From IMG/VR virus record IMGVR_UViG_3300047333_000081, positions 1 through 32,789 of that record: a stretch of 32,789 nucleotides of DNA; one strand, written 5' to 3'. The first letter of the stretch is position 1; every line of letters starts with the position of its first letter. Of the stretch, positions 2,040 through 25,466 are shown in pieces. This stretch comes from a virus. The notes under the pieces were generated by a model. That model was not told the DNA's origin. It ran no database searches and was given only the letters and a program-made list of their open reading frames with translations. A program made the translations under genes and the position numbers.

Positions 2040-2140
2040 CTATTCCGGCAGACCTACCCGTCGCATGGCGACGAAGACTTTGGTTGAAGGCCATCAACGT
2101 ACGACGTGCGAACCTTCACCGACGTGAAACACATCGCTAG
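2036..2140 (+). CDS. 34-residue Arg-rich peptide
   Basis: ATG 2036 overlaps the previous stop as ATGA and the frame ends at TAG 2138-2140. The product (MTIPADLPVAWRRRLWLKA...) is Trp- and Arg-rich, with an amphipathic helical look. It overlaps the lipoprotein gene start at 2106 by 35 bases. No family is recognised. The evidence is the overlap pattern and plausible composition only. Confidence 0.35.
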   Translation: MTIPADLPVAWRRRLWLKAINVRRANLHRRETHR

Positions 2141-3845: not shown

Positions 3846-4121
3846 ATGGCGTTCAACGAGGGGCAGCTTAACGATCGTGCGAGCGTCGTCGCTGCATATA
3901 CCGCCAGCATCATGATAGGTGCTGCGGTGTTCTACGCAGCGTTCGGAACGGCTACGCTTGCGGGATACAGCGTCTACTTTATGGCGAACGGAACCTTCGT
4001 GATCGGACTCACCGGTACGAAGTCTTCGTTCGCGTACACAATCTCGCTTCCGCTCACTTCAGCGTACGAGAATCAAACTGCGTTTCTTGCGGCTGTGACG
4101 ACCGCACTGAACGCTCTCTAG
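3846..4121 (+). CDS. Stand-alone small module related to the C-terminus of the next large protein
   Basis: This 91-residue product's ATG directly follows the previous stop. Residues about 24-58 ([17 protein letters not shown] and then [10 protein letters not shown]) align with the C-terminal module of the 4132-6723 product ([27 protein letters not shown]). Both continue with a Tyr/Ser/Pro stretch and an AFLAAV/ALQTVA-type helix. The gene therefore encodes as a separate protein what its neighbour carries as a fused domain. No cleavable signal peptide is obvious, although residues 15-33 are hydrophobic. The function is unknown; an assembly partner for the neighbouring secreted proteins is possible. 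Confidence 0.7.
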
Positions 4122-4131
4122 AAAGCAGACG

Positions 4132-6723
4132 ATGCAGTTCCGCAAAGCCGGGTTCAGTCTTTTCACGATACTCACATTCGTCTTTGCGTTCATGATGACG
4201 GGGCCGGTCAAATCGACGACGCTTCCGTATGTCTTCACCGGCGAGTACGCAGCACCCGCAGACGGTGATCCGCTTCAGACCTCTATCGCGCAATTGGAAG
4301 CGGATGGTTACGCATCCGTCATATCTAACTCCAGCGCAGTCGTCACTCAGGTGTTTAGTCAAGGTACTCCGAGTCGTTCGCCGCTCGCGACGATGGGACC
4401 GGTGTACGTCGTTTCGTCAACGATCAATTCTACAGCGCCGCAGTTAACGTTCGTCACGTCTCTCTACGGAAGTAACCCGTTCAGTGGAACACTTGTCCAC
4501 GTTCCGACCTGGGCCGTCAATCAATGTGGCGCACTAGATTACAGCAGTTCGTTCACAGGCTGTGTCACGGATTCAACCGATCAGCACATCTCTATCATCG
4601 ACTTGCTTAACAACGTCATCGTTGACGGTTGGCAGTGCTCGAACAACAGTACGTACAACGGCACCTCGCATGCGGGTGATCTTTATTGCTCGTACGGTCG
4701 CACGTATCCAATCGGCTCCAACGGTCTGGCAGAGACGAACACGCCGATCGGTTATTCTGCGCAGCATGCCGGATTCAGCGTCGGTGCTATCACGCTCACG
4801 CCGCAAGAAGTTCTTAACGCAGAGGCAGGCACGCCGATCGCACACGCGCTCGGCCTCAACATGGAATGCCTCAACAATCCCAGCCTCTATCCCGCCGATA
4901 CGACCAGCGCGTCTGACAACACCTGCACTAGCGATACGCCAGGTAACTATCCGCAGTACGGTCTGAACATGCACTTGAAGTCGACGGTGAACATCTCATC
5001 GCTCGGCGCGAGTACCGCGTGTCAAGTCATTCTGAAAGCGTATCAGACATACGGCATCTATCTCGCAGATACGGGGAACGATGGCGACAGCATCTTCACG
5101 TTCTCTGATTATCCATATCTGGACGATCCATCCGATCCGACCGATCCTTGGCCGACGGTCATTTCGCAGTTAGAGACAACCGGAGATGCGACGGGAACGT
5201 ATTCCGCGACGAATCCGAACGCAGTCACCTGGCAGAGTTGTCTCAACGACACGACGACGTCAGATTGGGAAATGGTCAAGGTCACGCAAGCGGCCACGCC
5301 GTCTCCGACGCCTTCGCCAACAGTTACGCCGACCGCGTCTCCGACGCCGACTCCGCTCGCTTCTATCGTGCCGGGATACGGGTATGCATCACCGACCGCA
5401 GCGACCACGAGCATTCCACTCACGCTCACGACGACGCCTCCGGATGCGACGTGGATCTATGTCTCGGTACATGGTCCGGGCTCCGGTGAAGTCTTCAGCG
5501 CACCGGCGACCGGTCCGTCATGGACACCGGAACTGACGGAAACAGGTGGAACGGGCGGAACGTCTGCGACGTCTGTATACGGGCGCTTCTACCGCACCGG
5601 CGATCCGCTCACGTATCTCTTCACCGGTAACTACGCAGATTATCTTTCTGGGTTCATCGTACCGGTTGAAGGTGCGTCGGCAACGAGTCCGATGACCTGC
5701 GTCGGTGCGAACAACGCATCGGCAACGTCGCAAACCTTCCCGAGCATCACGCCGTCTATCGCGAACTCGGTTGACATCGCATCACTCGTTATGAACAACG
5801 GCGGTTCTGAAACGGCGACGACTCCGACCAGCTTCTCGCTGATCAAGCACATGAATCCGACGTATCACGGGACCTACTTGTTCTCGTACCAGAGCCCGCC
5901 GCTCGCCGCACTCGCACCGAACACGACGCTGAGCACGGCTGATACGGTCACAGCCGTTCAGTGCGTTGTGAACGCAGGCGCAACACCGACGCCGATCGCG
6001 ACGGCCACGCCGACTCCGACCCCATCACCCACGCCGTCACCGACACCTACTGCATCTCCGACGCCAACTCCAACTCCAACTCCAACTCCCACGCCGTCAC
6101 CGTCACCAACTCCGTCGCCAACACCGACAGCGAGTCCTACGCTGACGCCCACGCCGTCTCCGACCGCAACTCCTACACCATCACCCACACCGACGCCAAC
6201 TCCCACGCCGTCACCGACGCCGACGCCAACGCCAACTCCAACTCCAACCGCGTCACCGTCACCAACTCCGTCGCCAACACCGACAGCGAGTCCTACGCTG
6301 ACGCCCACGCCGTCTCCGACCGCAACTCCTACACCATCACCCACACCGACGCCACAGCCGTCTGCAGCAGCACGCGCCGCGACGCTCGCTGCGAACTTAG
6401 CTCAGGGCGTCTATACGTTCTATGCGAATTGGGGCTCAACGCGAACGCTTCCCGCGTACAGCGTCTACTGGACCTACGGCGGGAATTGGGCGATCGCACT
6501 GACGGGTGCTGAGTATGATTTCCCGTACTACAGTTTCGCTCCGCTAGAAACGCCGTATGCGACAGAAGCAGCGTTGCAGACTGTTGCAACGGCGAACGCA
6601 GTAGATCGTGGCGTGAACTACACGAGTTACATCAAGCAGTTCTACCAAGACTTTCCGCTGCTGGCTAACTACCGTCCAGGCGGGTTGCTCCAAGGTGGGA
6701 ATTCGGGTATAATAGTGCTATGA
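4132..6723 (+). CDS. Large secreted multidomain protein with Pro/Thr repeats
   Basis: This 863-residue product has a signal peptide (basic QFRK, then [15 protein letters not shown] to about residue 28). Residues 30-385 hold an extracellular domain with [10 protein letters not shown] (237-246), [18 protein letters not shown] and [22 protein letters not shown] (297-318 region), like the preceding lipoprotein and like an uncharacterised secreted family known from many bacteria. A short Pro/Thr linker (389-409) leads to a beta-rich, Ig-like region (about 412-615). A long Pro/Thr/Ser repeat follows (about 617-740), encoded partly by a perfect 104-base duplication. A C-terminal module (745-830) resembles the 3846 product. 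The stop overlaps the next ATG as ATGA. It may be an exported adhesin, biofilm factor or virion fibre; the signal peptide favours export. Confidence 0.8.
6095..6198 (+). repeat. 104-base perfect direct repeat, copy 1
   Basis: It lies inside the Pro/Thr linker of the large secreted protein. I see it base for base again at 6251-6354, an offset of 156 bases or exactly 52 codons, so expansion or loss keeps the reading frame. Confidence 0.9.
6251..6354 (+). repeat. 104-base perfect direct repeat, copy 2
   Basis: This is the second copy of the 6095-6198 repeat. The 52 bases between copies are also simple Pro/Thr codons, so the linker probably varies in length by recombination or slippage. Confidence 0.9.
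6685..6713 (+). promoter_or_regulatory. Candidate sigma70-type promoter with perfect -10 box
   Basis: The sequence shows TTGCTC (6685-6690), a 17-base spacer, then a perfect TATAAT (6708-6713). The expected start of transcription falls at about 6720, the A of the next gene's ATG, so a leaderless transcript is possible. It lies within the 3' end of the large secreted protein gene. The -35 box matches only TTG of the consensus. Confidence 0.5.
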
Positions 6724-11448: not shown

Positions 11449-11455
11449 TTTGAAA

Positions 11456-12793
11456 ATGCAACTCGAAGATCCGTGGATTTATCCACGGGTCAAAGCTCTT
11501 CGCGACGAGCACGGAACTATCGCAGACGCCGCAGCAGCATTCGCGAAACAGTTCGGTCTCAGTTATGATGCAGTTCGTGTGCGTATGCAGCACACGTTCA
11601 AGGGAGATTTCGTCAGTCGCATTCCGTTAAGCTGGCGTCTTCCGTGGCCGTATGATCTGTACGAAGATCGTGCGTGCGATGAAAAGCGTTTGAAATTAGT
11701 ATTTCAAAAAGGGCGCATCCTCGTCAACAGCGATGGACTCATCGTCAAGTCGCCAGCGGAAACGTTCGATCCGCCGCACGATGTTCGGCGAGATAACATG
11801 ATCACCGATGCGACGGGTTCACAACTCGGTGACGAAGTTGAATCCAACGTACTCGAGCCGATCTACGACGCGCGAGAAGTACCTCAAACAGTAGACGAGC
11901 TACTCGCAGGGTTTGAGCGAGCGCAAGCGGAGAAGAAACTCCACGACCGTTCGCAAATACGCTGCCGAGTTGATTTCCGCGATCAGAACCTACCGATCGC
12001 CGTCATGGGATATAGCGACGTTCATTGGGGTAGTGAAGACGTTGATTACAACGCCATTCGCCGTCACGTTGAACTTCTGAAGACCATTCCTAACCTCTAC
12101 GCGTTCTGCTTAGGCGACGTCAACGAGTTCGCCAAGTTGAAACACCGAGGTGCTGTAGAAGGCCAGATCCATTCCCCCACAGTCCAAGCGCGCGCCGCTC
12201 GGGCTGTTTTCTTAGAGACGTGGGAGAAGTGGCTGACGGTCGTCCTCGGAAACCACGATATGCGGGTCTTCTTGGAATCTGGATTCGACATCGGTGAGTA
12301 TCTCATCGGAGAAGTGCCACCCGGCAAGAAGCGCATTCCGTTCATGCGCGACGGCGGTCTCGTCACCATTGAGCTAGGTCAGCAGGTTTACACGGTAAAT
12401 GTGTTTCATGGTGATAGTGCGTTCGGCACGCGTTTCAACGAGAATCACAAAGGACGTCAAACGGCTCGTCTCGTTGACGGTCGTACGGATGCGCAGTTCA
12501 ACGGCCACACTCACAATCCAGCCGTACAGGACACTTCAGAGCCGAGCGATGATATGCAAGGCGCACGGAGCGCCGTGTATGTCCAGTGCGGATCTTACAA
12601 GGTACTAGGTGACGACCACGCACGTCGTCGCAAGTATCTGGAAGTGAGCGACGTACAGATGGGTACGATCATCGCCTTCCCAGACACGCATCGTATCCTC
12701 GGATTCAAGCGTGTCGAAGAGGCAGTCGTCATTCTCAACGCGTTGACAGAACACTACGAACGCGGCGGTTCTATCACGGATTACATGCCGTGA
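11456..12793 (+). CDS. HTH plus calcineurin-like metallophosphoesterase
   Basis: The 445-residue product is taken from ATG 11456; TTG 11450 is an alternative. Residues 1-48 look like a helix-turn-helix (ALRDEHGTIADAAAAFAKQ, GLSYDAVRVRMQ). The second half has every metal-binding motif of the calcineurin superfamily in order: SDVH (D188, H190), LGDVNE (220-224), GNHD (265-268), FHGD (H318) and GHTH (350-353). The enzyme is therefore probably an active phosphodiesterase, perhaps on nucleic acid given the HTH. It lies between scaffold and Ntn hydrolase and its stop overlaps the next GTG. Confidence 0.88.
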   Translation: MQLEDPWIYPRVKALRDEHGTIADAAAAFAKQFGLSYDAVRVRMQHTFKGDFVSRIPLSWRLPWPYDLYEDRACDEKRLKLVFQKGRILVNSDGLIVKSPAETFDPPHDVRRDNMITDATGSQLGDEVESNVLEPIYDAREVPQTVDELLAGFERAQAEKKLHDRSQIRCRVDFRDQNLPIAVMGYSDVHWGSEDVDYNAIRRHVELLKTIPNLYAFCLGDVNEFAKLKHRGAVEGQIHSPTVQARAARAVFLETWEKWLTVVLGNHDMRVFLESGFDIGEYLIGEVPPGKKRIPFMRDGGLVTIELGQQVYTVNVFHGDSAFGTRFNENHKGRQTARLVDGRTDAQFNGHTHNPAVQDTSEPSDDMQGARSAVYVQCGSYKVLGDDHARRRKYLEVSDVQMGTIIAFPDTHRILGFKRVEEAVVILNALTEHYERGGSITDYMP

Positions 12794-13392
12794 GTTGCGT
12801 CGTCGCCTTAGTTGGTGACGACGGCCGAGTGTATTTCGGCGGTGACAGCGCCGCGACAGGCGGAGACGCGATTGAAATACGCCGCGACTCTAAAGTGTTC
12901 ATCAGAGATCAGGTTCTGTTCGGGTTCCAGAATTCGTTCAGAGTCGGCCAGCTTCTTCGTTATTCTCTCGTTGTTCCGAAGAGAAGAAGAGGAATGGATC
13001 TGAATCAGTACATGTGCACGACTTTCGTAGATGCTGTCTATGAATGCATGAAAGCTGGCCGGGCACTTGGGAACGATGAAGAGGATGAAGACGCACCGGC
13101 TGTCTTGAACAGTTCGCAATTCCTTGTCGGCTATGGGGGAAGAATTTTTCGCATAGATGGGGACTTTGCTGTTGCAGAAGTTGGAACTTTGTGGGATGCT
13201 ATCGGTAGCGGTGGTGATTCTGCACGCGGCGCACTTCTCGCGCAGGATTTAGTGATAGCTACAGCGAAACGCAACAAGCGGGCATTCACATACACGCCAG
13301 AACAACGGATCTTGGACGCATTGACTGCGTCTGAAAGACTTACGCCAAACGTACGTCGTCCGTTCTCAATCATTAAGTCGCCCGAAAAGTGA
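12790..13392 (+). CDS. Proteasome-beta/HslV-like Ntn hydrolase
   Basis: This 200-residue product starts at GTG 12790 (GTGA overlap). It begins Met-Ser-Cys-Val-Val-Ala, then GRVYFGGDSAAT, RRDSKVF, GFQNSFRVGQLLRY, FLVGYGGRIFRID and AIGSGGDSARGAL, the order found in proteasome beta-type peptidases. Removal of Met1 would expose Ser2 as nucleophile instead of the usual Thr, and Lys in RRDSKVF fits the catalytic lysine. No other protease is visible in the head module, so it may process scaffold and capsid or degrade scaffold. Similar stand-alone proteins occur in other phages, with unproven roles. Confidence 0.85.
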   Translation: MSCVVALVGDDGRVYFGGDSAATGGDAIEIRRDSKVFIRDQVLFGFQNSFRVGQLLRYSLVVPKRRRGMDLNQYMCTTFVDAVYECMKAGRALGNDEEDEDAPAVLNSSQFLVGYGGRIFRIDGDFAVAEVGTLWDAIGSGGDSARGALLAQDLVIATAKRNKRAFTYTPEQRILDALTASERLTPNVRRPFSIIKSPEK

Positions 13393-13398
13393 GTAACA

Positions 13399-14376
13399 AT
13401 GAAAAGAGCTCTCGTACTAGGTGCCGGTGGGTTCATCGGCAGTCATCTCGTCAAGCGTCTTAAAGCAGAAGGCTATTGGGTTCGCGGTGCGGATCTGAAG
13501 ATTCCGGAATTCTCTACCGGTATGACCGACGAGTTTTACCTCTACGATCTTCGTGAACAACATAACGTGCGTCGTCTGTTTCGCGACATGCAGGATGCGG
13601 AGGTCTATCAACTCGCGGCTGATATGGGCGGCGCAGGGTACATCTTCACCGGCGATCATGATGCAGATATCATGCATAATTCTGCGACGATTAATCTGAA
13701 CGTCTTGGACGCAGCGAAGAACATCGGCGTCAGTAAGATTTTCTATTCGTCGTCTGCGTGCATCTATCCGGCGTACAACCAGCTAGATCCAAATAACCCG
13801 AACTGCGCAGAAGATAGCGCGTATCCGGCCGAGCCTGACAGTGAGTATGGCTGGGAGAAGCTCTTCAGTGAGCGGCTCTACTTATCCTATATGCGCAACT
13901 ATCACATGGAAGTTCACGTCGCCCGTTACCACAACATTTTCGGTCCTGAGGGAACGTGGCAGGGCGGGAAAGAGAAAGCACCGGCAGCACTCTGCCGTAA
14001 GATCGCTCTCGCGGAAGACGGCGACTCCATTGAAGTCTGGGGTGATGGGGAGCAGACTCGTTCATTTCTATATATCGACGAGTGTGTAGAAGGCACGCTG
14101 CGGTTCATGCGATCCAATGCGTCGGGACCACTCAACATCGGTTCCGAGGAGATGGTCACGATCAATCAACTCGTCTCCATGATCGCATATATCGCCGGGA
14201 AGAAGATCTACATCAATCATGTGGATGGCCCGCTCGGTGTGCGCGGTCGCTCCTCTGATAACGCTCTCATAGAGAAGCAGATCGGATGGAAGCCGACGAC
14301 AAAACTCTTTGAGGGTCTCGTCTCTACATACGCGTGGATCGAAGAGCAGGTGAAGTATGCGCATAGCCTGGTCTAA
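13399..14376 (+). CDS. GDP-mannose 3,5-epimerase-like NAD-dependent enzyme
   Basis: This 325-residue extended short-chain dehydrogenase has GAGGFIGSH (8-16) for NAD binding, SSSACIYP with C121, YGWEK (Y150, K154), the segment from FGPEGTW through GGKEKAPAALCRK (K191, K193), WGDGEQTRSFLYIDECVEG and VRGRSSDN. These are the diagnostic blocks of GDP-D-mannose 3,5-epimerase, including the cysteine and lysine used as acid/base. The product would be GDP-L-galactose or GDP-L-gulose. The next gene, overlapping by 20 bases, is glycosyltransferase-like, suggesting a dedicated sugar transfer step. The start is ATG 13399. Confidence 0.92.
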   Translation: MKRALVLGAGGFIGSHLVKRLKAEGYWVRGADLKIPEFSTGMTDEFYLYDLREQHNVRRLFRDMQDAEVYQLAADMGGAGYIFTGDHDADIMHNSATINLNVLDAAKNIGVSKIFYSSSACIYPAYNQLDPNNPNCAEDSAYPAEPDSEYGWEKLFSERLYLSYMRNYHMEVHVARYHNIFGPEGTWQGGKEKAPAALCRKIALAEDGDSIEVWGDGEQTRSFLYIDECVEGTLRFMRSNASGPLNIGSEEMVTINQLVSMIAYIAGKKIYINHVDGPLGVRGRSSDNALIEKQIGWKPTTKLFEGLVSTYAWIEEQVKYAHSLV

Positions 14377-15424
14377 GTTCGGAGCGGCGATGACGTACGG
14401 TTCTGACGCACTTGTCGGACCGAGCGGCGGCACGAACCTCAAGAGTCGTTACATCAGACAGCTTCTCGCGATGGGCCATGACGTGTTCCCGATCGTACCG
14501 ATGACGCGTAAGAGCGAACCGTGGCCTGGATCACCGGAAGCAGATATCACCACTGCAGACCTCGTCATCGTTGAGGAAGGTCCGAATAGTCTTCTCTCGC
14601 ATTATCGTGGAACGACTGCGATTCAGTATCTGAACGAGCAGTTAGCGCGTTACGAAGGTCCGGTCATCTACATCCAGAGCGATCCGGACCTCCCGTTTGC
14701 GTTCTTCCCGGAAGCGTTCACGCCGAAGTATTACACCGGTCCGACGCACGCTGATCTGATGCGAAACAAGAAATGGCGTGTCGTTACGTGCTGTCGCAAC
14801 ATTCCGGAATTTAAGGCCGCGAACAACGGGCGGCGGTATCAGTACGAGAATCTTCCTGATGTTGAATTCAAGGTCGTGGAGCTTCACAACGTTCTCGCTG
14901 ACCCTGAGTCCATTCAGCCGCGTAACTACGACGGCATGAGATCTTCTACATACAACGTAGGCGCGTATATCGGCGGAGATCGTCGCTTCTGTCGCAAGAT
15001 GGTGGAGTACGGCGAACACTATGCGATGGATATCTACGGTAAGTGGAGCGAAGAGAAACTCGCGCGTATCGAATACACGCAGTTCAGATACAAAGGCGTT
15101 CTCCCTGACGGTCAAGTTCTGAAGACGTATGCAGAGTATTTCCACAGCCTCGCGATGGGCAGCCCGAAGTACGAACGCGTCGGTCTCGTTTCCGCACGTC
15201 TGTGGGAAGCAGCGTTCGCCGGTAACTATCCGCTTCTTGACAGCGATCTACCCGATCCGACAAACGGTCACATCATTCGTGTTACACCGCAGACGATTCG
15301 TGAAGTGATCGGTACGCAGTCTCGCGCGTGGTGGTGGGACAAAGCAGAAGAGCTTCAAGGACTTCTGTTGATTGAGGCTGACAAACATCCGACGGTTCCG
15401 GGTATGTTAGAAAACTTCGTCTGA
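14357..15424 (+). CDS. Putative GT-B-type glycosyltransferase
   Basis: This 355-residue product overlaps the end of the epimerase gene. The N-terminal half has a Rossmann-like layout with GPSGGTNLKSRYIRQLLAMG and VIVEEGPNSLLSH. The C-terminal half has MDIYGKW, FRYKGVLP and SARLWEAAFAGNYPLLDSDL, which resembles the acceptor-to-donor loop and the Glu-containing donor site of GT-B enzymes that end in EAxxxGxxPL. It likely transfers the sugar made by the neighbouring epimerase. The acceptor, whether virion protein, DNA or host envelope, is unknown. I recognise the fold type, not a specific family. Confidence 0.7.
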   Translation: MRIAWSKFGAAMTYGSDALVGPSGGTNLKSRYIRQLLAMGHDVFPIVPMTRKSEPWPGSPEADITTADLVIVEEGPNSLLSHYRGTTAIQYLNEQLARYEGPVIYIQSDPDLPFAFFPEAFTPKYYTGPTHADLMRNKKWRVVTCCRNIPEFKAANNGRRYQYENLPDVEFKVVELHNVLADPESIQPRNYDGMRSSTYNVGAYIGGDRRFCRKMVEYGEHYAMDIYGKWSEEKLARIEYTQFRYKGVLPDGQVLKTYAEYFHSLAMGSPKYERVGLVSARLWEAAFAGNYPLLDSDLPDPTNGHIIRVTPQTIREVIGTQSRAWWWDKAEELQGLLLIEADKHPTVPGMLENFV

Positions 15425-15555: not shown

Positions 15556-15594
15556 TAGACCTCCAGGTTGGTAACTGAGGAGTTTCTACTTCAC

Positions 15595-17019
15595 ATGGCT
15601 TTCGAGAATTTCCCCACCGTTCTGCAGCCGATCTTTCAGCAAAACATGCTGGACCGTCGCTTCCAGGAACAACTCAAGATGCTCGGCGCATATCGCAAGA
15701 GCGTCTATCGTCTTCCCGTAGAGAAGCGGAACGGCGAAACCATGATCTACTCTCGTGCGGGCCGCATCGCGCCTGTACTTGACGACATTGTTCCGTCGAC
15801 CAACACCGGTCTTGATAACGGTCTCACCGGTATCGGCGGTGTCGGCGCTGGCAACCCGACGTATCCGTTCGAGCAGTTCGCTGTTGGAATCGGTATGCGT
15901 CCGTACTTCCTTGACCTGAATCTCATTCAGGAAAAAGAAGTCATCGCTGACCTCTTCAAACAGAACGTTGACAATCTCGCAGAGAACGCGGCGCTGTCGC
16001 TGGATCTCTACGCGATGCAGACGGCGTTCAAAGCGTATCTCTCGGGCAACTCGTTTGCGCTCGGATCGTCTGCGACCAGCGGTGGTAACACGACCGTTCA
16101 CATGGACAATGTGTACGGCCTTGATGCGGCTTTCGCGACTGTCACGATCAACGGATCGGTCTTCCCGTACGGTATGCCTGCGGCGGTTTCGCCGAGCAAT
16201 CCGCTCGCTGCGACGCTGTATCCTGCTGCCGGTGGTTCCACCGCGATCAGCATCATCGGCATTGCGTACGACGGCACCAACGTAAGCTCGCTCGCGGGCC
16301 TGCAACTCGGTGCGTCGGGTACGATCACTATCTCGGGCACGGCGGTCACGCTCGCTGAAGGCGATGTCGTTGTCGCTGGCGATGCGCCTTCGGTGTTCCG
16401 TCCCAATGGCAAAGAATCGGCGTACGCGCTGGATTCGACCGACACGGTCGGTGCGCAGTTGATCCTCAACGCGGTTGCGGAACTTCGCGCGAACGGTGTC
16501 AAGCCTCCGCTCGGTAACGGTACGTATCCGTGCTACATCGATCCGCTGGTTGACGCGCAGTTCTTCACCGATCCGCAGTACCAGATCATGAGCCAAGGGC
16601 AGTTCCAGTCTCCGGACTTCCACAACGGTCGCGTCTCGCAGAACTTTGGCGTGACCTTCGTGCCGACCACGAACGCCCCGAGCTTCTCGCTCACGAATCA
16701 CGCGTCGTTGCCGATTCATGTACGTCACCTCATCGTCACCGGTGACAAGTACGTGCAAGAGTCTCCCTTCGCCGGTACCATGGAAGCGATTCGCTCCATG
16801 CCGGATATGGGTGTGGCGGACTACCGCTTCGTGGACGACATCGTCATGGTTAACCGTCTGCCGCTCGATCGCGCTGGACAAATCATGTCGATGGGTTGGT
16901 ACTACATCGGCGGGTTCGTCGCTCCGACGGACGCAACGATCAACTCGACGGTGGTTCCGTCGGCGTCTGCCGCACGCTACAAGCGCGCCGCAGTTGTCCA
17001 AGTGGCTGCGCAAAGGTAG
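15595..17019 (+). CDS. Major capsid protein
   Basis: This 474-residue product starts at ATG 15595 with GAGGAG at 15577-15582. The frame is open to TTG 15568, but MAFENFPTVLQPIFQQ is the natural start. N-terminal residues form the helical arm and E-loop-like region (RRFQEQLKMLGAYRKSV). A Gly/Ser/Thr-rich middle (about 150-270) looks like an inserted beta domain. The rest (ELRANGVKPPLGNGTYPCYIDP, FTDPQYQIMSQGQF) resembles the N4-gp56/HK97-fold capsid class. The flanking leader repeats and the strong terminator suit the most abundant transcript. A long open frame on the opposite strand is a codon-usage shadow. Confidence 0.9.
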   Translation: MAFENFPTVLQPIFQQNMLDRRFQEQLKMLGAYRKSVYRLPVEKRNGETMIYSRAGRIAPVLDDIVPSTNTGLDNGLTGIGGVGAGNPTYPFEQFAVGIGMRPYFLDLNLIQEKEVIADLFKQNVDNLAENAALSLDLYAMQTAFKAYLSGNSFALGSSATSGGNTTVHMDNVYGLDAAFATVTINGSVFPYGMPAAVSPSNPLAATLYPAAGGSTAISIIGIAYDGTNVSSLAGLQLGASGTITISGTAVTLAEGDVVVAGDAPSVFRPNGKESAYALDSTDTVGAQLILNAVAELRANGVKPPLGNGTYPCYIDPLVDAQFFTDPQYQIMSQGQFQSPDFHNGRVSQNFGVTFVPTTNAPSFSLTNHASLPIHVRHLIVTGDKYVQESPFAGTMEAIRSMPDMGVADYRFVDDIVMVNRLPLDRAGQIMSMGWYYIGGFVAPTDATINSTVVPSASAARYKRAAVVQVAAQR

Positions 17020-17031
17020 CCACTAAAGGCT

Positions 17032-17074
17032 AAGAGAAAAGAACCTCTATGAAGAGTAGAGGTTCTTTTCTTTT
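17032..17074 (+). terminator. Long intrinsic terminator after the capsid gene
   Basis: An 18-pair stem (17032-17049 with 17057-17074, one G-T pair) closes a seven-base loop, tgaagag, and ends in a T-rich strand. It begins 13 bases after the capsid stop. The ATG of the next gene starts right at its 3' edge (17075). Confidence 0.9.
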
Positions 17075-17566
17075 ATGAAGAAACGATTCAGCGGTGAGTC
17101 TGGTAATTGTCAGAAATGTGGAGTGTGGCGTAGACGACTTCATCACGATCACATCATTCCGTATTTCAAAGGCGGCACAGATGATGTGTCAAACATCCAA
17201 CTACTGTGCGCGAACTGTCATCAAGACAAAACAGCACTAGATCTTAAGGGTAGAAAAGCGCATCCTAATTCAATAGAGGGCGCACGACGCGCGAACACCG
17301 GCAGACCACTCACAGAAGAACACAAAGCGAAACTTCGCGCAGCGACTATCGCGCGTCCTTACCCTGAATCGACACGCGCCGCTACAAAGGCTCGGATGCA
17401 AGGAAATCAACTCTCTAAGGGACATAAGAGAAGTCCGGAGCACCGAGCGAACTGGACCGCGTCTATGAAAGCTAGTTGGGCGAAGAGGAAAGCCGCGAAG
17501 GCAGTAACAGTAGATCAGCAAAGCGAAGCAAATTCTTCAACCCTAATAGAGGAGTGTCATGGCTAA
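17075..17566 (+). CDS. HNH homing-type endonuclease with NUMOD3-like repeats
   Basis: The 163-residue product has C12/C15 (CQKC), HHDHIIP (23-29), GGTDDVSN and LLCANCH (C45, C48, H49), the full zinc-stabilised HNH nuclease core. Residues about 77-140 contain two basic NUMOD3-type DNA-contact motifs ([13 protein letters not shown] and [15 protein letters not shown]). Such genes are free-standing homing endonucleases. It sits between capsid and the next head gene, and its only possible ribosome site (AGAGG, 17058-17062) is buried in the terminator stem. Its stop overlaps the next ATG by eight bases. Confidence 0.92.
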
Positions 17567-18131
17567 ACTAGATTCAAGCGCGCATCCTGGCGGACCGGCT
17601 CTCAATCCTGGCTACACGGCGAATGTTACGCCGTCAGGTGCTCTTGATGAGAATAACTTAGCGGGCACTGTCACGCCTGCGAAGTCGTTCAGTGTTGTGT
17701 GGAAAGGCGCTACGATTCCTTTCTATTCTGGAATGCCGCGCATCGTCGCGCCGGATCTTCTTGCGTATCTGAAGACGCTCGGTGGTTCTGCGAACGCGCA
17801 CGCAACCGGAACGGTCGGTGGCACGTTCGCCACCAACGACACGCTCACGACCACCATCGCAGGGCACGCAGTTCTGTATACGGTTGTCGCTGGCGACACG
17901 ACCGACGCACTTATCGCTACGCACGTCGCTGCTGCGATCAATGCGAACACGACCGTAAACAAACTTGTCATCGCATCTGCGGCAGGCGCAGTCGTCACTG
18001 TCACCGCGATCGCTGACGGCGTCGCTGGTAACGCCATCACGTTCGCGTGCACCAAAGTTTCGTCCGCTGGTACCTACACCGCATCCGGTGCGGATCTCGC
18101 TGGTGGCGTGAATGGGACGTACATCATCTAA
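17559..18131 (+). CDS. Probable head decoration or structural protein
   Basis: The 190-residue product starts at ATG 17559 after an AGAGGA site. Residues 1-80 are an extended N-terminal region with [17 protein letters not shown]. Residues about 83-187 form a beta-rich domain ([59 protein letters not shown]) of the Ig-like or tail-tube-like type often appended to phage virion proteins. Its position right after the capsid gene suggests capsid decoration or a head-tail joint. The exact role is not known. Confidence 0.7.
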
Positions 18132-18412
18132 TGATCGCTAAAACACAGAAGGAAGCTGACGCGGCGAAGGTTGATGTCATCGGCATGCTACAAACGCAGA
18201 AGCTGATCACTGACACATACAAGCCGACGGCACCGATTGAAGGGATGGAATTCGTTGAAGTCCCTAATCCTAAAGAGTACATTGCTCTTGACGACATTCG
18301 TACTACGACTCTGTCGGGTCCGATGCTTATTCGTAGAGGTCAGCACATCACGCACCCGCGTACGATTCAGATTCTACTAGACGCAAAGGCTAACATCCGA
18401 GCGATCAAGTAA
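18131..18412 (+). CDS. Small structural-region protein
   Basis: This 93-residue product uses ATG 18131 in a TAATG overlap. An upstream frame extension to 18047 exists but overlaps the previous gene heavily. It is mixed alpha/beta (AKTQKEADAAKVDVIGMLQT, IALDDIRTTTLSGPMLIRRGQ) and ends in a helix. By position it could be a head completion or neck component. No family is recognised. Confidence 0.65.
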   Translation: MIAKTQKEADAAKVDVIGMLQTQKLITDTYKPTAPIEGMEFVEVPNPKEYIALDDIRTTTLSGPMLIRRGQHITHPRTIQILLDAKANIRAIK

Positions 18413-19188
18413 TGGCTCTCGATCTTGCGACGAAAGCGTCCATCCGTCGACACTTAGGACTCCCGGCAGCGGGCAGTCCTCTCGGCGGTTATACGCTCGG
18501 AATTCGCACGGTCACGCGCGCTGGTCAGCTTGAATATTACATGAACTCGCTTCAGCTTGAAGAAGAAGCGATCATCCTCGGACAGCCGTATGCGGCATAC
18601 GCGATTCTTGATCCCGTCGCTGTCGGTGATACAATCACGACTATTGTCACGCCGCCGAACAACGGTACCCCCGTCACGTACGCGTATCAGATAGAATCTG
18701 GTGACACAGGACAGACGGTCGCGTACAAGCTCGCAGCGAACATTCAACTTCTGTTGTCGAACGTTTTCGTGACGCCGTCCAATCTGTTGATACCGGCGCA
18801 GGTTTCCTTCCGGAGCCCAATCGGTACGTTCCTCGTCACGCCAATGGTTACGCGCGCCGGTGGGACGCCAACGACCGTTCTCGTACAAGCAGCGAACGGC
18901 TCTACGTATCCGACGCCACAATATCAAATCACAGACAGCCCCGTTACGATGGCGTACGGTCTGCTGCCGGTGTGCGATGCGTTGGAATCGCAGCTATTGA
19001 ATGCGGCGCAGAACATGTCGTATAGCGACGTCGGCTCGACCGCTACCGGTGCGGCTACGTTCCGCAAGGATGAGCTCATTGTGCGCAGCAGCATGCTGCA
19101 ACGCTATCGTCACGAGCTCGGCGTGATGCTGTCATTCTTCCAGCCAGACTCCGTGTCAGGGATACCCTCGTTCGGGATTGAAGTCTAA
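18412..19188 (+). CDS. Head-tail connector candidate with an inserted beta domain
   Basis: The 258-residue product is joined by TAATG on both sides. The N-terminus (LATKASIRRHLGLP) and C-terminal helices (DELIVRSSMLQRYRHELGVML) are the kind of helical core found in head-tail adaptor proteins. Residues about 68-115 (VGDTITTIVTPPNNGT, YQIESGDTGQTVAYKLAANI) look like a beta insert related in style to the 17559 product. The role is inferred from gene order between capsid and sheath. Confidence 0.65.
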   Translation: MALDLATKASIRRHLGLPAAGSPLGGYTLGIRTVTRAGQLEYYMNSLQLEEEAIILGQPYAAYAILDPVAVGDTITTIVTPPNNGTPVTYAYQIESGDTGQTVAYKLAANIQLLLSNVFVTPSNLLIPAQVSFRSPIGTFLVTPMVTRAGGTPTTVLVQAANGSTYPTPQYQITDSPVTMAYGLLPVCDALESQLLNAAQNMSYSDVGSTATGAATFRKDELIVRSSMLQRYRHELGVMLSFFQPDSVSGIPSFGIEV

Positions 19189-19955
19189 TGGGTATCGCGG
19201 CCCTTGATAACGCGCTGCGCCGAGGTTTAGGTAAAGCAGGCGAGGTTATCGGTACGACGTTCAGCGTCTATCGTTTGGGTGGAACGTCCGGCACGCCGAA
19301 CGGCGCTGCGAATATCATTGATCCGCTGAACCTCATCAACGATAACTATTTCGCGCGCATCGTCCATCAGAAACCGCCTGTCGTTATTGAGACAGAAGAA
19401 GTCTATCGTCTCTACTACATCGGTCTCTGCGATACGCGTCAGCTCAAAGTCGGCGATGTCTTCGTTGAAACGGGCCCGGAGTTAGCTGACACACCAGATG
19501 GCCGCGTCTATTTCCTCAACGACGTACAGCCGTTTCTTCCGCCTGTTTTCACGCGCGTAGAGATTTTCGGAACCATCACGCGTCCGCATGGCGACGGCGC
19601 TTCTGAGCAGCCGATTCAGGGTTACGACGGGTATCAGGGCGAGAGCAAGTTCACGGAAGAGATCATCACGCTCGGCGATAGTCTCTACTCTTTCGCAACG
19701 TCTGGGACGCCTACCGTCATACCAATGGGTATTCAGCCTGCGAAGCGTATGGGATCACAGCAGGACATCAAGTTCCCAACAGCGACGCATCGTGGACTTT
19801 ACATGGCATCATGCCCGCTTCTTCCCGGCGTACAGATTCAGCCTGGCGACTACCTGTCCGATCAAAACGGAAGTCGCTACGTCATCCATGTTCCGCACGC
19901 ACAGACGGTTGGGAATCAAGGCATTCAGATGCTTGTCGAGAGCGTCTTCACGTAA
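19188..19955 (+). CDS. Neck or head-tail joining protein candidate
   Basis: This 255-residue product has TAATG overlaps at both ends. A helical N-terminus (ALDNALRRGLGKAGEVIG) precedes beta-rich segments (VYRLYYIGLCDTRQLKVGDVFVE, RVYFLNDVQPFLPPVFTRVEIFG) and a C-terminal barrel-like part (YLSDQNGSRYVIHVP). The length and position fit a stopper or joining component, but I cannot assign a family with confidence. Confidence 0.6.
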   Translation: MGIAALDNALRRGLGKAGEVIGTTFSVYRLGGTSGTPNGAANIIDPLNLINDNYFARIVHQKPPVVIETEEVYRLYYIGLCDTRQLKVGDVFVETGPELADTPDGRVYFLNDVQPFLPPVFTRVEIFGTITRPHGDGASEQPIQGYDGYQGESKFTEEIITLGDSLYSFATSGTPTVIPMGIQPAKRMGSQQDIKFPTATHRGLYMASCPLLPGVQIQPGDYLSDQNGSRYVIHVPHAQTVGNQGIQMLVESVFT

Positions 19956-20281
19956 TGGATGTCGTCGAGGATTCCAAGAAATTCGCTTCTGAAAACGCTG
20001 AGAAAATAAAGCAGTTTCAAGAGCGTGTCGAGGGTTTGCAAAACGAACACAGAGACGCTACAATTTCTGCAGAGGCGAAGTTCACAGAGTGGCTTGACGA
20101 GCTTCATCTGCCGTCGTATCCGAATACGAGTTATTGGGCCAAGTACGGTCCGATGCTCAACGGAAAAATACGCGCCTGGCATTATGAAGATTGTGAAAAG
20201 CGTCTGAACGAAGTTCTGTCTCAGATAGATTCTGAGTTCCTCTCGCGCATAGAGGAAATTGAAAGAGAGTACTTCGGGTGA
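19955..20281 (+). CDS. Small coiled-coil neck-region protein
   Basis: This 108-residue product starts at ATG 19955 (TAATG); the longer frame from 19811 lies inside the previous gene and is rejected. Residues 5-45 are a charged coiled coil (KIKQFQERVEGLQNEH), followed by a Trp/Tyr/Pro-rich turn (LHLPSYPNTSYWAKYGPM) and another helix pair. Its stop overlaps the receiver gene's GTG. The function is unknown. Confidence 0.65.
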   Translation: MDVVEDSKKFASENAEKIKQFQERVEGLQNEHRDATISAEAKFTEWLDELHLPSYPNTSYWAKYGPMLNGKIRAWHYEDCEKRLNEVLSQIDSEFLSRIEEIEREYFG

Positions 20282-20631
20282 AGGTAGTTATCGCAGACGA
20301 CTCGTCCATCATGCGTAAGAACTGCATGAGCATTGCGAAGCAGATCGGACTAGAAGTTGTCGCTGAGTGCGAAGATGGTGCGAAGGCGCTTGAAGCGATC
20401 AAGGCGCTGAAGCCTGACGTCGCGATCGTTGATTACATCATGCCGTATTTAACAGGCGGCGAGATCGTTCGGTACGTGCGCGAGCACAAGCTACCGACGA
20501 AAGTTATCCTCGCGACGTCTATGGGGCAACGAGCAGCGGCGTTTGACCCGACGAACAAGCCAGATGGTATCATCATCAAGCCGTTCGTAACTGCGATCAT
20601 GCGTTTAGAAATAGCCCGAGCGTTTTCATAA
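20278..20631 (+). CDS. Stand-alone CheY-like receiver domain protein
   Basis: This 117-residue product is a complete response-regulator receiver with no output domain. The acidic pair is D7/D8 (VIADDSS), the phosphorylated aspartate is D52 (VAIVDYIMP), the switch Thr/Ser is 80-81 (LATSM), and the conserved lysine is K101 (IIKPF). All residues needed for Mg2+ binding and phosphorylation are present, so it should be phosphorylatable by a host histidine kinase. It begins at GTG 20278 (GTGA) and is followed by TAATG, so it is co-translated with neck genes. It may interfere with host chemotaxis or two-component signalling. Confidence 0.93.
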   Translation: MKVVIADDSSIMRKNCMSIAKQIGLEVVAECEDGAKALEAIKALKPDVAIVDYIMPYLTGGEIVRYVREHKLPTKVILATSMGQRAAAFDPTNKPDGIIIKPFVTAIMRLEIARAFS

Positions 20632-21260
20632 TGGCAGCAGGAATTGACGCGGTCTTAGATAACCTAGCGCAGACGACCGTGAATAATATTCTTGCGCCAT
20701 ATCAGCCGAATCTCACACCGCCGTATCAGAACACGAGCCCGCTCGCTGGCGGTATTCCATCGACGCTCATCACAGCCGGTCATCCGATTCAGATCAAAGT
20801 AATGGAGCGTCTTGAAAACAAGATGAGCCAAGTATCGATCTACGATGCGCCGCCTGAGAAGATCTTTCCGTACGTTAATGCAATGCCGGTTAGTACGGAC
20901 GGAGAAGGCAACGCGATCGTAGAGACAGCCGCGTCATCTAAGAAAGTTATCTTTGAGATCTGGACGTACGATCGTACGTCGCTTGCGAAGATACGCAACA
21001 TCTTGCGATCGCAGCTAGGCGACTTCTTCCGTCAGACAGAAACGGACGGAACGATCTCTCTGTTTCGCTACAATCAAGACGTCCCGATGTTCAATGAGCA
21101 AAAGGATTCTGTCTACATCGTTCAGCTTCATTACATGTGCGATTTCACTGTCACGACGACGCGTTATGCGGGCACTGAAGTGACAGAAGCAAGCCTGACA
21201 GTTACTGAAGAAACGACAGGTGGCTCTGAGATCGCATCTCAAACTTTCACAGTGACTTAG
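20631..21260 (+). CDS. Probable tail terminator protein
   Basis: This 209-residue product is coupled to the receiver gene by TAATG. It has the mixed alpha/beta pattern of phage tail terminators: an N-terminal helix, strands with PIQIKVMERLENKMSQVSIYD, KVIFEIWTYDRTSLAKIRNILRSQL, then YIVQLHYMCDFTVTTT, and a Thr/Glu-rich tail. It lies immediately before the sheath gene, the usual place for the protein that caps the tail tube. The assignment rests on position and fold style. Confidence 0.65.
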   Translation: MAAGIDAVLDNLAQTTVNNILAPYQPNLTPPYQNTSPLAGGIPSTLITAGHPIQIKVMERLENKMSQVSIYDAPPEKIFPYVNAMPVSTDGEGNAIVETAASSKKVIFEIWTYDRTSLAKIRNILRSQLGDFFRQTETDGTISLFRYNQDVPMFNEQKDSVYIVQLHYMCDFTVTTTRYAGTEVTEASLTVTEETTGGSEIASQTFTVT

Positions 21261-21339
21261 AGATGAATGTCAACGAAGGGCAAGAACAGAACACAAACGA
21301 ACAATTTCAGTCCTAGGGTACTCTGAGGAGATTTAATCA

Positions 21340-22905
21340 GTGGCAGTTTTGAATGCAGCGGGGACCGGCGTTGATGACGTTTATATCAACGTACTACCTC
21401 CTCAGCCCGTACTACTTTCTGGAACGGGACTCTTTAACGGTGCGACCGTCGGTGCTGCATCTTGGGGTCCTGTCAATACGCCGATCACGGTTAACACGCC
21501 TCAGCAAGCTCTTGCGACTTTTGGCCCTCCGATCAACTCTGGTTTTGACATCGTTCAAGATGCAGCGTTGTTTCTCAATCAGGGTCCTGCCGGTGGCGTG
21601 ACGTGCGTCCGTGTCGCCGGAACTGGTGCGACGACGGCGACGGGTACCATAGAAGATTCCGCTTCCGCTGCGGGTGCGAACGGTACTGCGCTTTATCCAG
21701 GTTCTTTTGGTAGCCAAATAGTCGTCACGATCGCAGCCGGTAGCAACAGTGCGACCGGTGCATTGACGTGGAAAGTCTCGACGCAACTCGGTACGCAAGC
21801 TGCGCAAGTTTGGGATCGCATCCCCGGTCAAACCGGCGCTGTCGCGTGGGCTAACATCATTTCAGCAGTCAACACCGGTTATCGCGGTGCGCCTCCGTCT
21901 AACTGCGTGAGACTCGCACTTCCGTCAACGCCGTCTGCGTTGCTTCCGGTGGCACAGAGCGTTACGTTCACCGGTGGGTCTAACGGCGCGGCTCTCACCA
22001 CGACTCAGCAAATCGGCGTTGACGGCGGGTCCGGTTCACGTACCGGCATGTACGCGCTGCGCGGCACTGGTTTCGATACGGTATGGCTCGCTGGTAACTC
22101 CGACTCTACGTCGTGGGCAACGCTCCTCGCTTTCGCAAAGAGCGAGGGCGGTGAGTGCATCGGTTCGTTCCCACTCGGTACGAGCGTTGCATCCGCAGTC
22201 ACGGCAAAATTGTCGGCTGGTATCGACGATCCGCAGATGATCCTCCTTCTTGGGTGGGTCACGTATCTTGACACGCAACTCAACACGAACGTAACGTTCG
22301 CTCCGTCTGGTACGGCGGCGGGTCTCATCTGCAGCGTACAGCCGCATCAGTCGCCCGGTAATCGCCAGGTGTACGGTCTGCTCGGTACGGAGCAGACGCT
22401 CGGCACGAATCCGCAAGGGTTTAGCTACAGCGACCTCACGACGCTGGAAGCCAACGGCATCAACACGATCACGTCGCCGATTCCTTCGGCAAACGCGCTC
22501 GGTCTGCGTCACGGTAAAAACACGTCGTCGAACTTCGCGACGAGTGAAATCCCTTACGCACGCAAGACGAACTCCATTGTCCGCGACCTCAGCGGTACGG
22601 TCATGGGTCAGTTCGTCAATCGTCTCCAAACGACGCAGACCAACGATCCGCTTCGCAACGGCGTACTCGCTGCGCTGAACGGATACTTTGGTCCGCAAGT
22701 TTCAGAGAACACGATCGACGCGTACAACGTCATCTGTGACTTGACGAATAACACCCCACAGACCATCGCGGCCGGTCAGTTGTTTGCAACGGTCATCGTT
22801 CAGTACCTCGCGGTCGTGGATACGTTCACGATCAACCTCACCGCAGGGCAGACCGTCAGCGTGACGGCTCAGAGCACTGCCGCAACCGCCACCGGAATCC
22901 AGTAA
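21340..22905 (+). CDS. Contractile tail sheath protein
   Basis: The 521-residue product starts at GTG 21340 with GAGGAG eleven bases upstream. The N-terminus (VLLSGTGLFNGATVGAASWGPVNTP, TPQQALATFGPP) and the C-terminal part (MGQFVNRLQTTQ, LRNGVLAALNGYFGPQV) match myophage sheaths. The Gly/Thr/Ala-rich middle domain is typical. It polymerises around the tube and contracts at infection. Tube and chaperone genes follow. Confidence 0.93.
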   Translation: MAVLNAAGTGVDDVYINVLPPQPVLLSGTGLFNGATVGAASWGPVNTPITVNTPQQALATFGPPINSGFDIVQDAALFLNQGPAGGVTCVRVAGTGATTATGTIEDSASAAGANGTALYPGSFGSQIVVTIAAGSNSATGALTWKVSTQLGTQAAQVWDRIPGQTGAVAWANIISAVNTGYRGAPPSNCVRLALPSTPSALLPVAQSVTFTGGSNGAALTTTQQIGVDGGSGSRTGMYALRGTGFDTVWLAGNSDSTSWATLLAFAKSEGGECIGSFPLGTSVASAVTAKLSAGIDDPQMILLLGWVTYLDTQLNTNVTFAPSGTAAGLICSVQPHQSPGNRQVYGLLGTEQTLGTNPQGFSYSDLTTLEANGINTITSPIPSANALGLRHGKNTSSNFATSEIPYARKTNSIVRDLSGTVMGQFVNRLQTTQTNDPLRNGVLAALNGYFGPQVSENTIDAYNVICDLTNNTPQTIAAGQLFATVIVQYLAVVDTFTINLTAGQTVSVTAQSTAATATGIQ

Positions 22906-22919
22906 GGGAAGGATCTTAG

Positions 22920-23405
22920 ATGCCTACTAGCGGAAAGTTTAACATTGGTCGCGACCTTGCGGTCTCGATCACCGTTAACGGCAACGTCATCAGTGAGTTC
23001 GGTCTCACGACTGACACGCATTTCCAGCCGCAGTGGACTGAAGCCAAAGTTCGTCCGACGAACAATGGTGGCGTCTTCGTCGTGCGGCCGATCTTCGGTG
23101 GCTACCAAGTCGACCTCACCTTCGCCCGTCAGAATGGCGTCGGTGACGATCTCGCGCAGTTCCTGGAAGACGCATTTGAAAACGGCGATCAGGACCCTGT
23201 CGTCACGATGCTGGAAACGGTTCGCAACGACGACGGTTCGGTCGATCAGTACAACTACATCGGCGGAACGTTCTATCCGACGGACCTCGGTTCGTATAAG
23301 GGCGTTGACGAAGTAAGCCAGACGTATCGCTTCTTCTTCCCGCAGCGTCAGTCGGTCAGCGGATCGTCTGCACAAACCACCCTCGGAGGGCAGTCTCTAA
23401 CCTAA
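22920..23405 (+). CDS. Tail tube protein
   Basis: This 161-residue product directly follows the sheath, with AAGGA before ATG 22920. It starts GKFNIGRDLAVSITVNG and continues with strands separated by turns (VRPTNNGGVFVVRPIFGGYQVDLTF, YIGGTFYPTDLGSYKGVDE). That beta-sandwich and its length are standard for myophage inner tubes. It ends in a TAATG overlap. Confidence 0.9.
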   Translation: MPTSGKFNIGRDLAVSITVNGNVISEFGLTTDTHFQPQWTEAKVRPTNNGGVFVVRPIFGGYQVDLTFARQNGVGDDLAQFLEDAFENGDQDPVVTMLETVRNDDGSVDQYNYIGGTFYPTDLGSYKGVDEVSQTYRFFFPQRQSVSGSSAQTTLGGQSLT

Positions 23406-24977: not shown

Positions 24978-25466
24978 GTGGTAGGCGGAATCTACACGAT
25001 TGAGTGTCTCGCTAATAATAGAATCTACGTCGGCTCTTCTATCGATTTGGAGAAGCGTCTACTTCGTCATAAACGCGCACTACATGCAGGCTCGCATTAC
25101 AATACACATCTACAGAACGCGTGGAACAAGTATGGAGAATCTGCGTTTGTATTCAGTGAATGGCTGATCGTTTCTGATAGAAAAGATCTTCTCGCGTTGG
25201 AAAATGCGGCGATGGATTTTTTTGAGCTGGACCGCACTCTTTTTAACATTGTAAGGTCAGCTAAGAGTCCTTTAGGGTTTCGCCACACCAGCGATGCTAG
25301 GCATAGAATTAGCGAAGCACAGAAGAAACGGTTTTCTGAAAATGATTATTTAGCGGCGAGCAGAGGTAGAGCTAACGCCACGCGCGGTTTAGGTAAAGGC
25401 TCTCGACCTGCGCACTCTGAAGCTATGCGCGCGTCGTGGGCACGCCGGAAAGCTAAAGTGCTGTAA
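24978..25466 (+). CDS. GIY-YIG homing-type endonuclease
   Basis: This 162-residue product starts at GTG 24978. It contains GIYTI (4-8), YVGSS (17-21), R27, the HxNTHLQNAWNKYG block and a Glu (E75) in the position of the catalytic glutamate, so the GIY-YIG nuclease looks intact. The C-terminal half has SDARHRISEAQKKRF and SEAMRASWARRKAK, matching NUMOD3-type DNA contacts like those in the HNH gene. The gene is richer in A/T than its neighbours. It is inserted between a tail protein and the tape measure with no lost bases, ending in TAATG. Confidence 0.92.
   Translation: MVGGIYTIECLANNRIYVGSSIDLEKRLLRHKRALHAGSHYNTHLQNAWNKYGESAFVFSEWLIVSDRKDLLALENAAMDFFELDRTLFNIVRSAKSPLGFRHTSDARHRISEAQKKRFSENDYLAASRGRANATRGLGKGSRPAHSEAMRASWARRKAKVL

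What the first reader, a model, noticed from the sequence alone, without database searches (positions are those of the whole stretch)
20278..20631. Intact CheY-like receiver inside the neck-tail operon
All receiver residues (D7/D8, D52, T80/S81, K101) are present and the gene is translationally linked on both sides. A free receiver in a structural operon would be made late, in amounts similar to virion proteins. It could act as a phosphate sink for host CheA or other kinases, change motility, or have been recruited as a virion part.
Basis: partly seen in the sequence, partly recalled or inferred. Interest (0 to 1): 0.65.

Follow-up and report, generated by a model that had tools for sequence, protein, structure and literature searches.

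The report
Phage receiver cassette in tail operon
A phage known only from metagenomes carries, wedged between two tail-building genes, an intact copy of the bacterial 'receiver' signalling switch together with a small helical partner protein; a related phage lacks exactly this gene pair, so it is probably an optional tool for meddling in the host's signalling rather than a part of the virus particle.

Summary
Window 20278-20631(+) encodes a complete stand-alone receiver (PF00072, 59.5 bits; AlphaFold pLDDT 96) with D7/D8, D52, T80 and K101 intact. It overlaps its neighbours by 4 nt upstream and 1 nt downstream, inside a contractile-tail operon.

What tools added: (1) the receiver forms a two-gene cassette with the upstream helical-hairpin gene 19955-20281. 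(2) A syntenic relative (L111) has both genes in the same slot, receiver 47% identical, catalytic residues kept. (3) L117, a closer kin of L111, lacks both: the neck gene's stop overlaps the tail-terminator start, a natural empty site. (4) A distant phage (L028) has a divergent receiver in the same slot. (5) No close bacterial receiver was found; codon usage matches the phage's structural genes.

So it is an old, apparently selected, dispensable cassette, not an essential virion part. The alpha4 face and aromatic switch used by CheY are eroded, arguing weakly against flagellar-motor binding. Most likely it is a late cytoplasmic effector that takes phosphoryl groups from host kinases, as a sink or as a switch for its helical partner; that function is inferred. 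Stand-alone phage receivers are known (Alteromonas phages V22, A5), so this is a new variant, moderately interesting.

The parts
20278..20631 (+). Stand-alone receiver (single-domain response regulator), 117 aa, GTG start
   Evidence: PF00072 59.5 bits; AF2 pLDDT 96; 47% identical receiver in the same slot of L111
20296..20301 (+). Codons of the acidic pair D7, D8 (metal site)
   Evidence: translation and 20-receiver alignment
20431..20433 (+). Codon of D52, the phospho-acceptor
   Evidence: D in all 20 receivers compared
20515..20517 (+). Codon of T80 (conserved Thr/Ser)
20578..20580 (+). Codon of K101; the residue three before it is Ile98, where most receivers have an aromatic
19955..20281 (+). 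Cassette partner: 108-aa predicted helical hairpin, no obvious membrane segment; start overlaps the neck-gene stop, end overlaps the receiver start by 4 nt
   Evidence: AF2 helices 15-48 and 59-107, pLDDT 83, from only 2 sequences; diverged homologue in L111; absent with the receiver in L117
19188..19955 (+). Left flank of the slot: neck/head-completion-type gene (phrog_14605, function unknown)
   Evidence: homologues in L111, L117, L028
20631..21260 (+). Right flank of the slot: tail-terminator-type gene, named by position
   Evidence: phrog_13532 weak match; homologues in L111 and L117
21340..22905 (+). Tail sheath protein
   Evidence: phrog_23 E 2.8e-39
15568..17019 (+). Major head protein of the same operon
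   Evidence: phrog_1357 E 9.4e-11; 68% identity in L111

Best explanation
A two-gene accessory cassette (helical hairpin plus receiver) sits between the neck gene and the tail-terminator gene in a lineage of contractile-tailed phages. Shown: it is a real receiver with all catalytic residues, it occurs with its helical partner in two lineages and is absent with it in a third, so it is dispensable for the virion operon. Inferred: it is translated with the structural genes late in infection, stays in the cytoplasm, and is phosphorylated on D52 by one or more host histidine kinases (none is encoded on the phage contigs). It has no output domain and an eroded CheY-type output face. It therefore either drains phosphoryl groups from host pathways or, when phosphorylated, binds or releases its helical partner, altering host signalling while virions are built. 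I put about even odds on drain versus partner switch.
For: Intact catalytic set in window, L111 and L028 despite 24-48% identity. Same slot in L111 and L028. Precise empty site in L117. Receiver and helical gene present together in window and L111 and absent together in L117. Codon usage like the structural genes, unlike the HNH and GIY-YIG inserts. No histidine-kinase ATPase domain on the window, L111, L112, L028 or L117 records. Alpha4 is 7 residues in the model; T-to-K spacing is 21 here and 16 in L111. Receivers recur in late regions of unrelated Alteromonas phages.
Against: No phosphorylation, expression or binding data. The helical partner is missing in L028, and its L111 homologue lacks a clear start codon. 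L111 and L112 are one phage seen twice, so cassette-positive lineages number two, plus L028. The host is unknown, so it is not known to have matching kinases. The T-to-K spacing of ordinary receivers is about 20-22, so the window protein's own alpha4 is only slightly unusual.
Confidence: 0.5

Rival explanations
1. CheY mimic: the phosphorylated receiver binds the host flagellar (or pilus) motor and changes motility during infection.
For: Best solved relatives include CheY of Pyrococcus and Thermotoga; the beta4-alpha4 loop TSMGQ resembles the SAMGQ/TAVGQ loop of those CheYs; stand-alone architecture.
Against: Alpha4-beta5-alpha5, the FliM-binding face of CheY (established knowledge), is eroded, and the aromatic switch position is Ile98 here, His in L111, Leu in L028; no che genes nearby; equally good matches to NarL-type receivers.
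Confidence: 0.15
2. Virion or assembly component: the receiver was recruited as an accessory neck or tail protein, phosphorylation being incidental.
For: Position between neck and terminator genes with overlapping reading frames; same slot in three phages.
Against: L117, kin of L111, has the same operon without it, as do about twenty more distant relatives; catalytic residues are kept, which a structural role would not need.
Confidence: 0.12
3. Regulator of the phage's own late programme (for example lysis timing), reading host kinase state, as the position of receivers in Alteromonas phage lysis regions might suggest.
For: In V22, A5, PB15 and R8W a receiver lies near spanin-, XhlA-, holin- or endolysin-like genes, each time after a small helical gene.
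Against: The window receiver is not in a lysis region, its helical partner has no obvious membrane segment, and the tree places it apart from the Alteromonas receivers.
Confidence: 0.13
4. Passing cargo: a captured host gene with no selected role.
For: The slot tolerates insertions (L007 has another gene there); neighbouring cargo genes turn over.
Against: Catalytic residues and synteny are kept while the rest of the protein diverged to 47%, about the pace of the core structural genes; codon usage is adapted.
Confidence: 0.1

Closest known systems
CheY-like proteins of Alteromonas phages V22 (gp30) and A5 (gp11), with the PB15 and R8W receivers
   Same: Stand-alone phage-encoded receivers with all catalytic residues, in late-gene regions, each preceded by a small helical gene. 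V22 and A5 are annotated as class II auxiliary genes (PMC7289586, PMC10579305); R8W g48 was called PhoB (PMC8228385).
   Different: Placed apart in the tree; lie at the tail-fibre/lysis junction, not in the neck-tail slot; keep the aromatic switch Tyr; partner genes look membrane-anchored.
CheY of Thermotoga/archaeal type
   Same: Single-domain receiver, about 27-33% identity, Z about 18-20; similar MGQ loop.
   Different: Short alpha4, no aromatic switch residue, no chemotaxis genes nearby.
Bacterial phosphate-sink or hub single-domain receivers (CheY1-type sinks, PMC4214558; MrrA, PMC5964349)
   Same: A receiver without output domain that accepts phosphoryl groups: the behaviour proposed here.
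   Different: Those are chromosomal with known kinases; here the kinase is unknown and the gene is viral.
PIT4 of Pseudomonas phage LSL4 (PMC10714779)
   Same: A phage protein that acts on host two-component systems.
   Different: PIT4 is an early protein that binds kinase domains; its abstract does not describe it as a receiver.
cREC receivers of jumbo phages (PMC7824862)
   Same: Receiver fold in phages.
   Different: cREC is divergent, tied to NAD+/cyclic-nucleotide systems and never to histidine kinases; the window protein is a classical receiver.

Membership tests
Receiver domain (PF00072) | Profile match above the curated cut-off | tested here: met
   59.5 vs 30.2 bits
Receiver domain (PF00072) | (beta-alpha)5 fold | tested here: met
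   AF2 pLDDT 96.1; Z 20.4, rmsd 1.6 over 117 residues to 3eul_B
Receiver domain (PF00072) | Acidic pair, phospho-acceptor Asp, Thr/Ser, Lys | tested here: met
   D7, D8, D52, T80, K101
Receiver domain (PF00072) | Phosphorylation | not testable with these tools
   needs biochemistry
Chemotaxis CheY | Single-domain receiver | tested here: met
   117 aa, no other domain
Chemotaxis CheY | Aromatic switch residue three before the conserved Lys | tested here: not met
   Ile98; His in L111, Leu in L028
Chemotaxis CheY | Full-length alpha4 in the FliM-binding face | tested here: inconclusive
   alpha4 residues 82-88 in the model; clearly shortened in L111
Chemotaxis CheY | Linkage to cheA or other che genes | tested here: not met
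   no HATPase_c on the record, which is only a phage fragment
Alteromonas phage CheY-like group (V22/A5) | Common clade | tested here: inconclusive
   placed apart from window+L111 (itself 100/94), but deep forks are weak
Alteromonas phage CheY-like group (V22/A5) | Position at tail-fibre/lysis junction | tested here: not met
   neck-tail slot here versus L119-L122
Virion structural protein of this lineage | Present in all relatives that share the operon | tested here: not met
   absent from L117 and from phiKX1-like relatives

The most novel reading that the evidence does not exclude
The helical hairpin and receiver are a phage-owned phospho-switch: a host kinase sets the receiver's state, which releases or holds the helical protein, so that the phage reads the host's physiological state late in infection and adjusts assembly, lysis or host shut-down. 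The same principle would have arisen several times, since receivers preceded by small helical genes recur in late regions of unrelated phages.
Probability: 0.18. Interest if true: 0.75.

Novelty: new variant of a known kind. Interest (0 to 1): 0.43.

Why it matters
In the papers found, stand-alone receivers in phages are noted only as auxiliary genes of guessed function. Here there is a syntenic pair, a partner gene, a natural empty site in a relative, and kept catalytic residues. That makes a defined question: does a phage take part in the host's phosphorelay late in infection, and through which partner? If so, host two-component signalling would be a target during assembly, not only at entry or in early takeover.

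Tried and rejected
Single-protein scans of viral contigs with the receiver, sheath and terminator gave no relatives; the terminase gave one 4 kb near-identical fragment without the slot. Profile scans worked; the neck-gene profile returned only L028's contig. The genome scan with the receiver gave only LytTR-, NarL-, CheB- or other multidomain-type receivers, at most 46% identical over part of the domain. Many 'phage' hits are unannotated records, some of which may be bacterial DNA, and were not used. Host search with the capsid in 396 + 396 genomes of two phyla found nothing, and without a positive control proves nothing. The helical partner has no confident fold match, and its histidines are not conserved in L111, so a phosphotransfer (HPt) or kinase-dimer role was dropped; a CheZ-type phosphatase motif (recalled, D-x3-Q) was looked for by eye and not found. 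The N4 'Receiver domain' paper (PMC12642591) uses the word for a pinholin region and is unrelated. Promoter and terminator scans of 17000-23000 gave nothing usable. Chance: a 59-bit profile match is not chance.

Full report
OBSERVATION. The ORF at 20278-20631(+) exists as described: GTG start, 117 aa. It matches PF00072 with 59.5 bits against a cut-off of 30.2 and is the only receiver in the 32.8 kb virus record. D7, D8, D52, T80 and K101 stand at the catalytic positions. AlphaFold gives a complete receiver fold, mean pLDDT 96, best matched by NarL- and CheY-type receivers. The start overlaps the stop of the preceding gene by 4 nt and the stop overlaps the next start by 1 nt. Flanking genes encode head, sheath, tube-like (by position), tape-measure and baseplate proteins, so this is a contractile-tailed phage.

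THE CASSETTE. The gene just upstream (19955-20281) encodes 108 aa that AlphaFold models as a helical hairpin (pLDDT 83, only two sequences in the alignment), with no confident relative among solved structures. A profile scan with two phage receivers found L111 and L112. They are the same phage (99.99% identical DNA over 13.8 kb) from two metagenomes. L111 is syntenic with the window: head protein 68%, sheath 56%, tube 71%, neck gene 54%, terminator 49% identical, and the receiver, in the same slot, 47%. A diverged helical gene lies upstream of the receiver there too, although its start codon is unclear. A capsid-profile scan then gave L117, a relative close to L111 (81% capsid DNA identity), in which the neck gene ends in TAATG and the terminator begins at once, with neither cassette gene. 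This is a natural empty site. In about twenty other relatives around Komagataeibacter phage phiKX1, many of them near-duplicates, the neck gene likewise abuts the terminator, while L007 has a different gene in that slot. PF00072 searches of 86 related records found receivers in this slot only in L028, L111 and L112; many of these records are fragments.

L028. This distant phage (sheath 31%) has a 153-aa receiver exactly between the neck-gene and terminator homologues. It is only 24% identical to the window receiver, sits on a long branch and lacks the helical gene. Whether it shares ancestry in the slot or is an independent arrival cannot be decided.

SELECTION AND AGE. Codon usage of the receiver fits the phage's structural genes (44% of equally long structural segments score as low), unlike the HNH and GIY-YIG genes of the same window (0%). 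Cargo genes of the window (phosphoesterase, epimerase, HNH, GIY-YIG) gave no match in L111, but the receiver did. All catalytic residues are kept in all three slot receivers. No close bacterial receiver turned up in one scan of 84,980 representative genomes; the hits were 28-46% identical, often over part of the domain, and belong to larger regulators. That scan requires exact 8-residue matches, so a moderately close bacterial relative could be missed.

MECHANISM. Established knowledge: receivers take a phosphoryl group from a histidine kinase or small donors; CheY uses alpha4-beta5-alpha5 with an aromatic switch to bind FliM. Here the aromatic position is Ile98 (His in L111, Leu in L028) against aromatic residues in nearly all other receivers compared, including all four Alteromonas phage receivers. 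Alpha4 is 7 residues in the model, and L111 has lost about five more in this region. The loop TSMGQ resembles that of Thermotoga and archaeal CheY, so descent from such a CheY is possible. With no kinase ATPase domain on these phage records, the phosphoryl source would be the host or acetyl phosphate. The steps from there (sink, or switch acting on the helical partner) are inference.

COMPARISON. The closest published cases are CheY-like proteins of Alteromonas phages V22 and A5, labelled auxiliary genes; no functional test was seen in the passages read (PMC7289586, PMC10579305). Reading their loci, and those of PB15 and R8W, shows receivers near spanin-, XhlA-, holin- or endolysin-like genes, each preceded by a small helical, apparently membrane-anchored gene. 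The tree places window+L111 (100/94) apart from them, though deep branches are weak. The recurrence of stand-alone receivers in late regions of phages of several morphotypes is the most suggestive wider pattern, but the sample is small and was found by searching for receivers.

VERDICT. A real, intact, old and dispensable phage receiver cassette; function probably interference with or reading of host phospho-signalling late in infection (0.5). Not an essential virion part. New variant of a known kind; interest 0.43.

Noticed in passing
L119:3621-4829, L120:3631-4886, L121:3690-4743, L122:3473-4839: Four unrelated Alteromonas phages carry a stand-alone receiver near spanin-, XhlA-, holin- or endolysin-like genes, each preceded by a small TM/coiled-coil gene: possible lysis-linked receivers, published only as auxiliary genes.
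   Followed up: partly
window 11450-15424: A calcineurin-like phosphoesterase, a protein that looks like an Ntn-hydrolase/proteasome subunit (by eye), an NAD-dependent sugar epimerase and a glycosyltransferase-like gene (by eye) sit between scaffold and head protein; none has a match in the L111 locus.
   Followed up: partly
window 17075-17566 and 24978-25466: HNH and GIY-YIG genes inside the structural operon have codon usage clearly different from the structural genes, as expected of recent homing-endonuclease inserts.
   Followed up: partly
window 2106-6723: Two large proteins with long Pro/Ser/Thr-rich repeats (PTPTPSP) and N-terminal hydrophobic segments, plus a small protein (3846-4121) resembling the C-terminal part of the second; no Pfam match.
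   Followed up: no
window 15586-17013 (-): A 475-aa open frame runs antisense over nearly the whole head-protein gene; L111 has a 534-aa antisense frame at the same place. Probably a codon-usage effect.
   Followed up: no
L007:7561-8502: The slot that holds the receiver cassette holds a 313-aa glycosyltransferase-like protein (by eye; no Pfam match) in this relative, so the slot may be a general insertion point.
   Followed up: partly
L087 and L088: Two distant sheath relatives (the records of L040 and L045) encode receivers far from the tail genes.
   Followed up: no
L002:7914-8618: Mu-like Pseudomonas phage Komp_PAO1_1 has a receiver-encoding + strand frame where the record annotates a hypothetical gene on the - strand.
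   Followed up: no
window 17559-18131: Decoration-type gene (by position) whose middle matches part of a tail-sheath family (phrog_165, E 1.4e-8), suggesting a beta-domain shared between head and sheath proteins.
   Followed up: no
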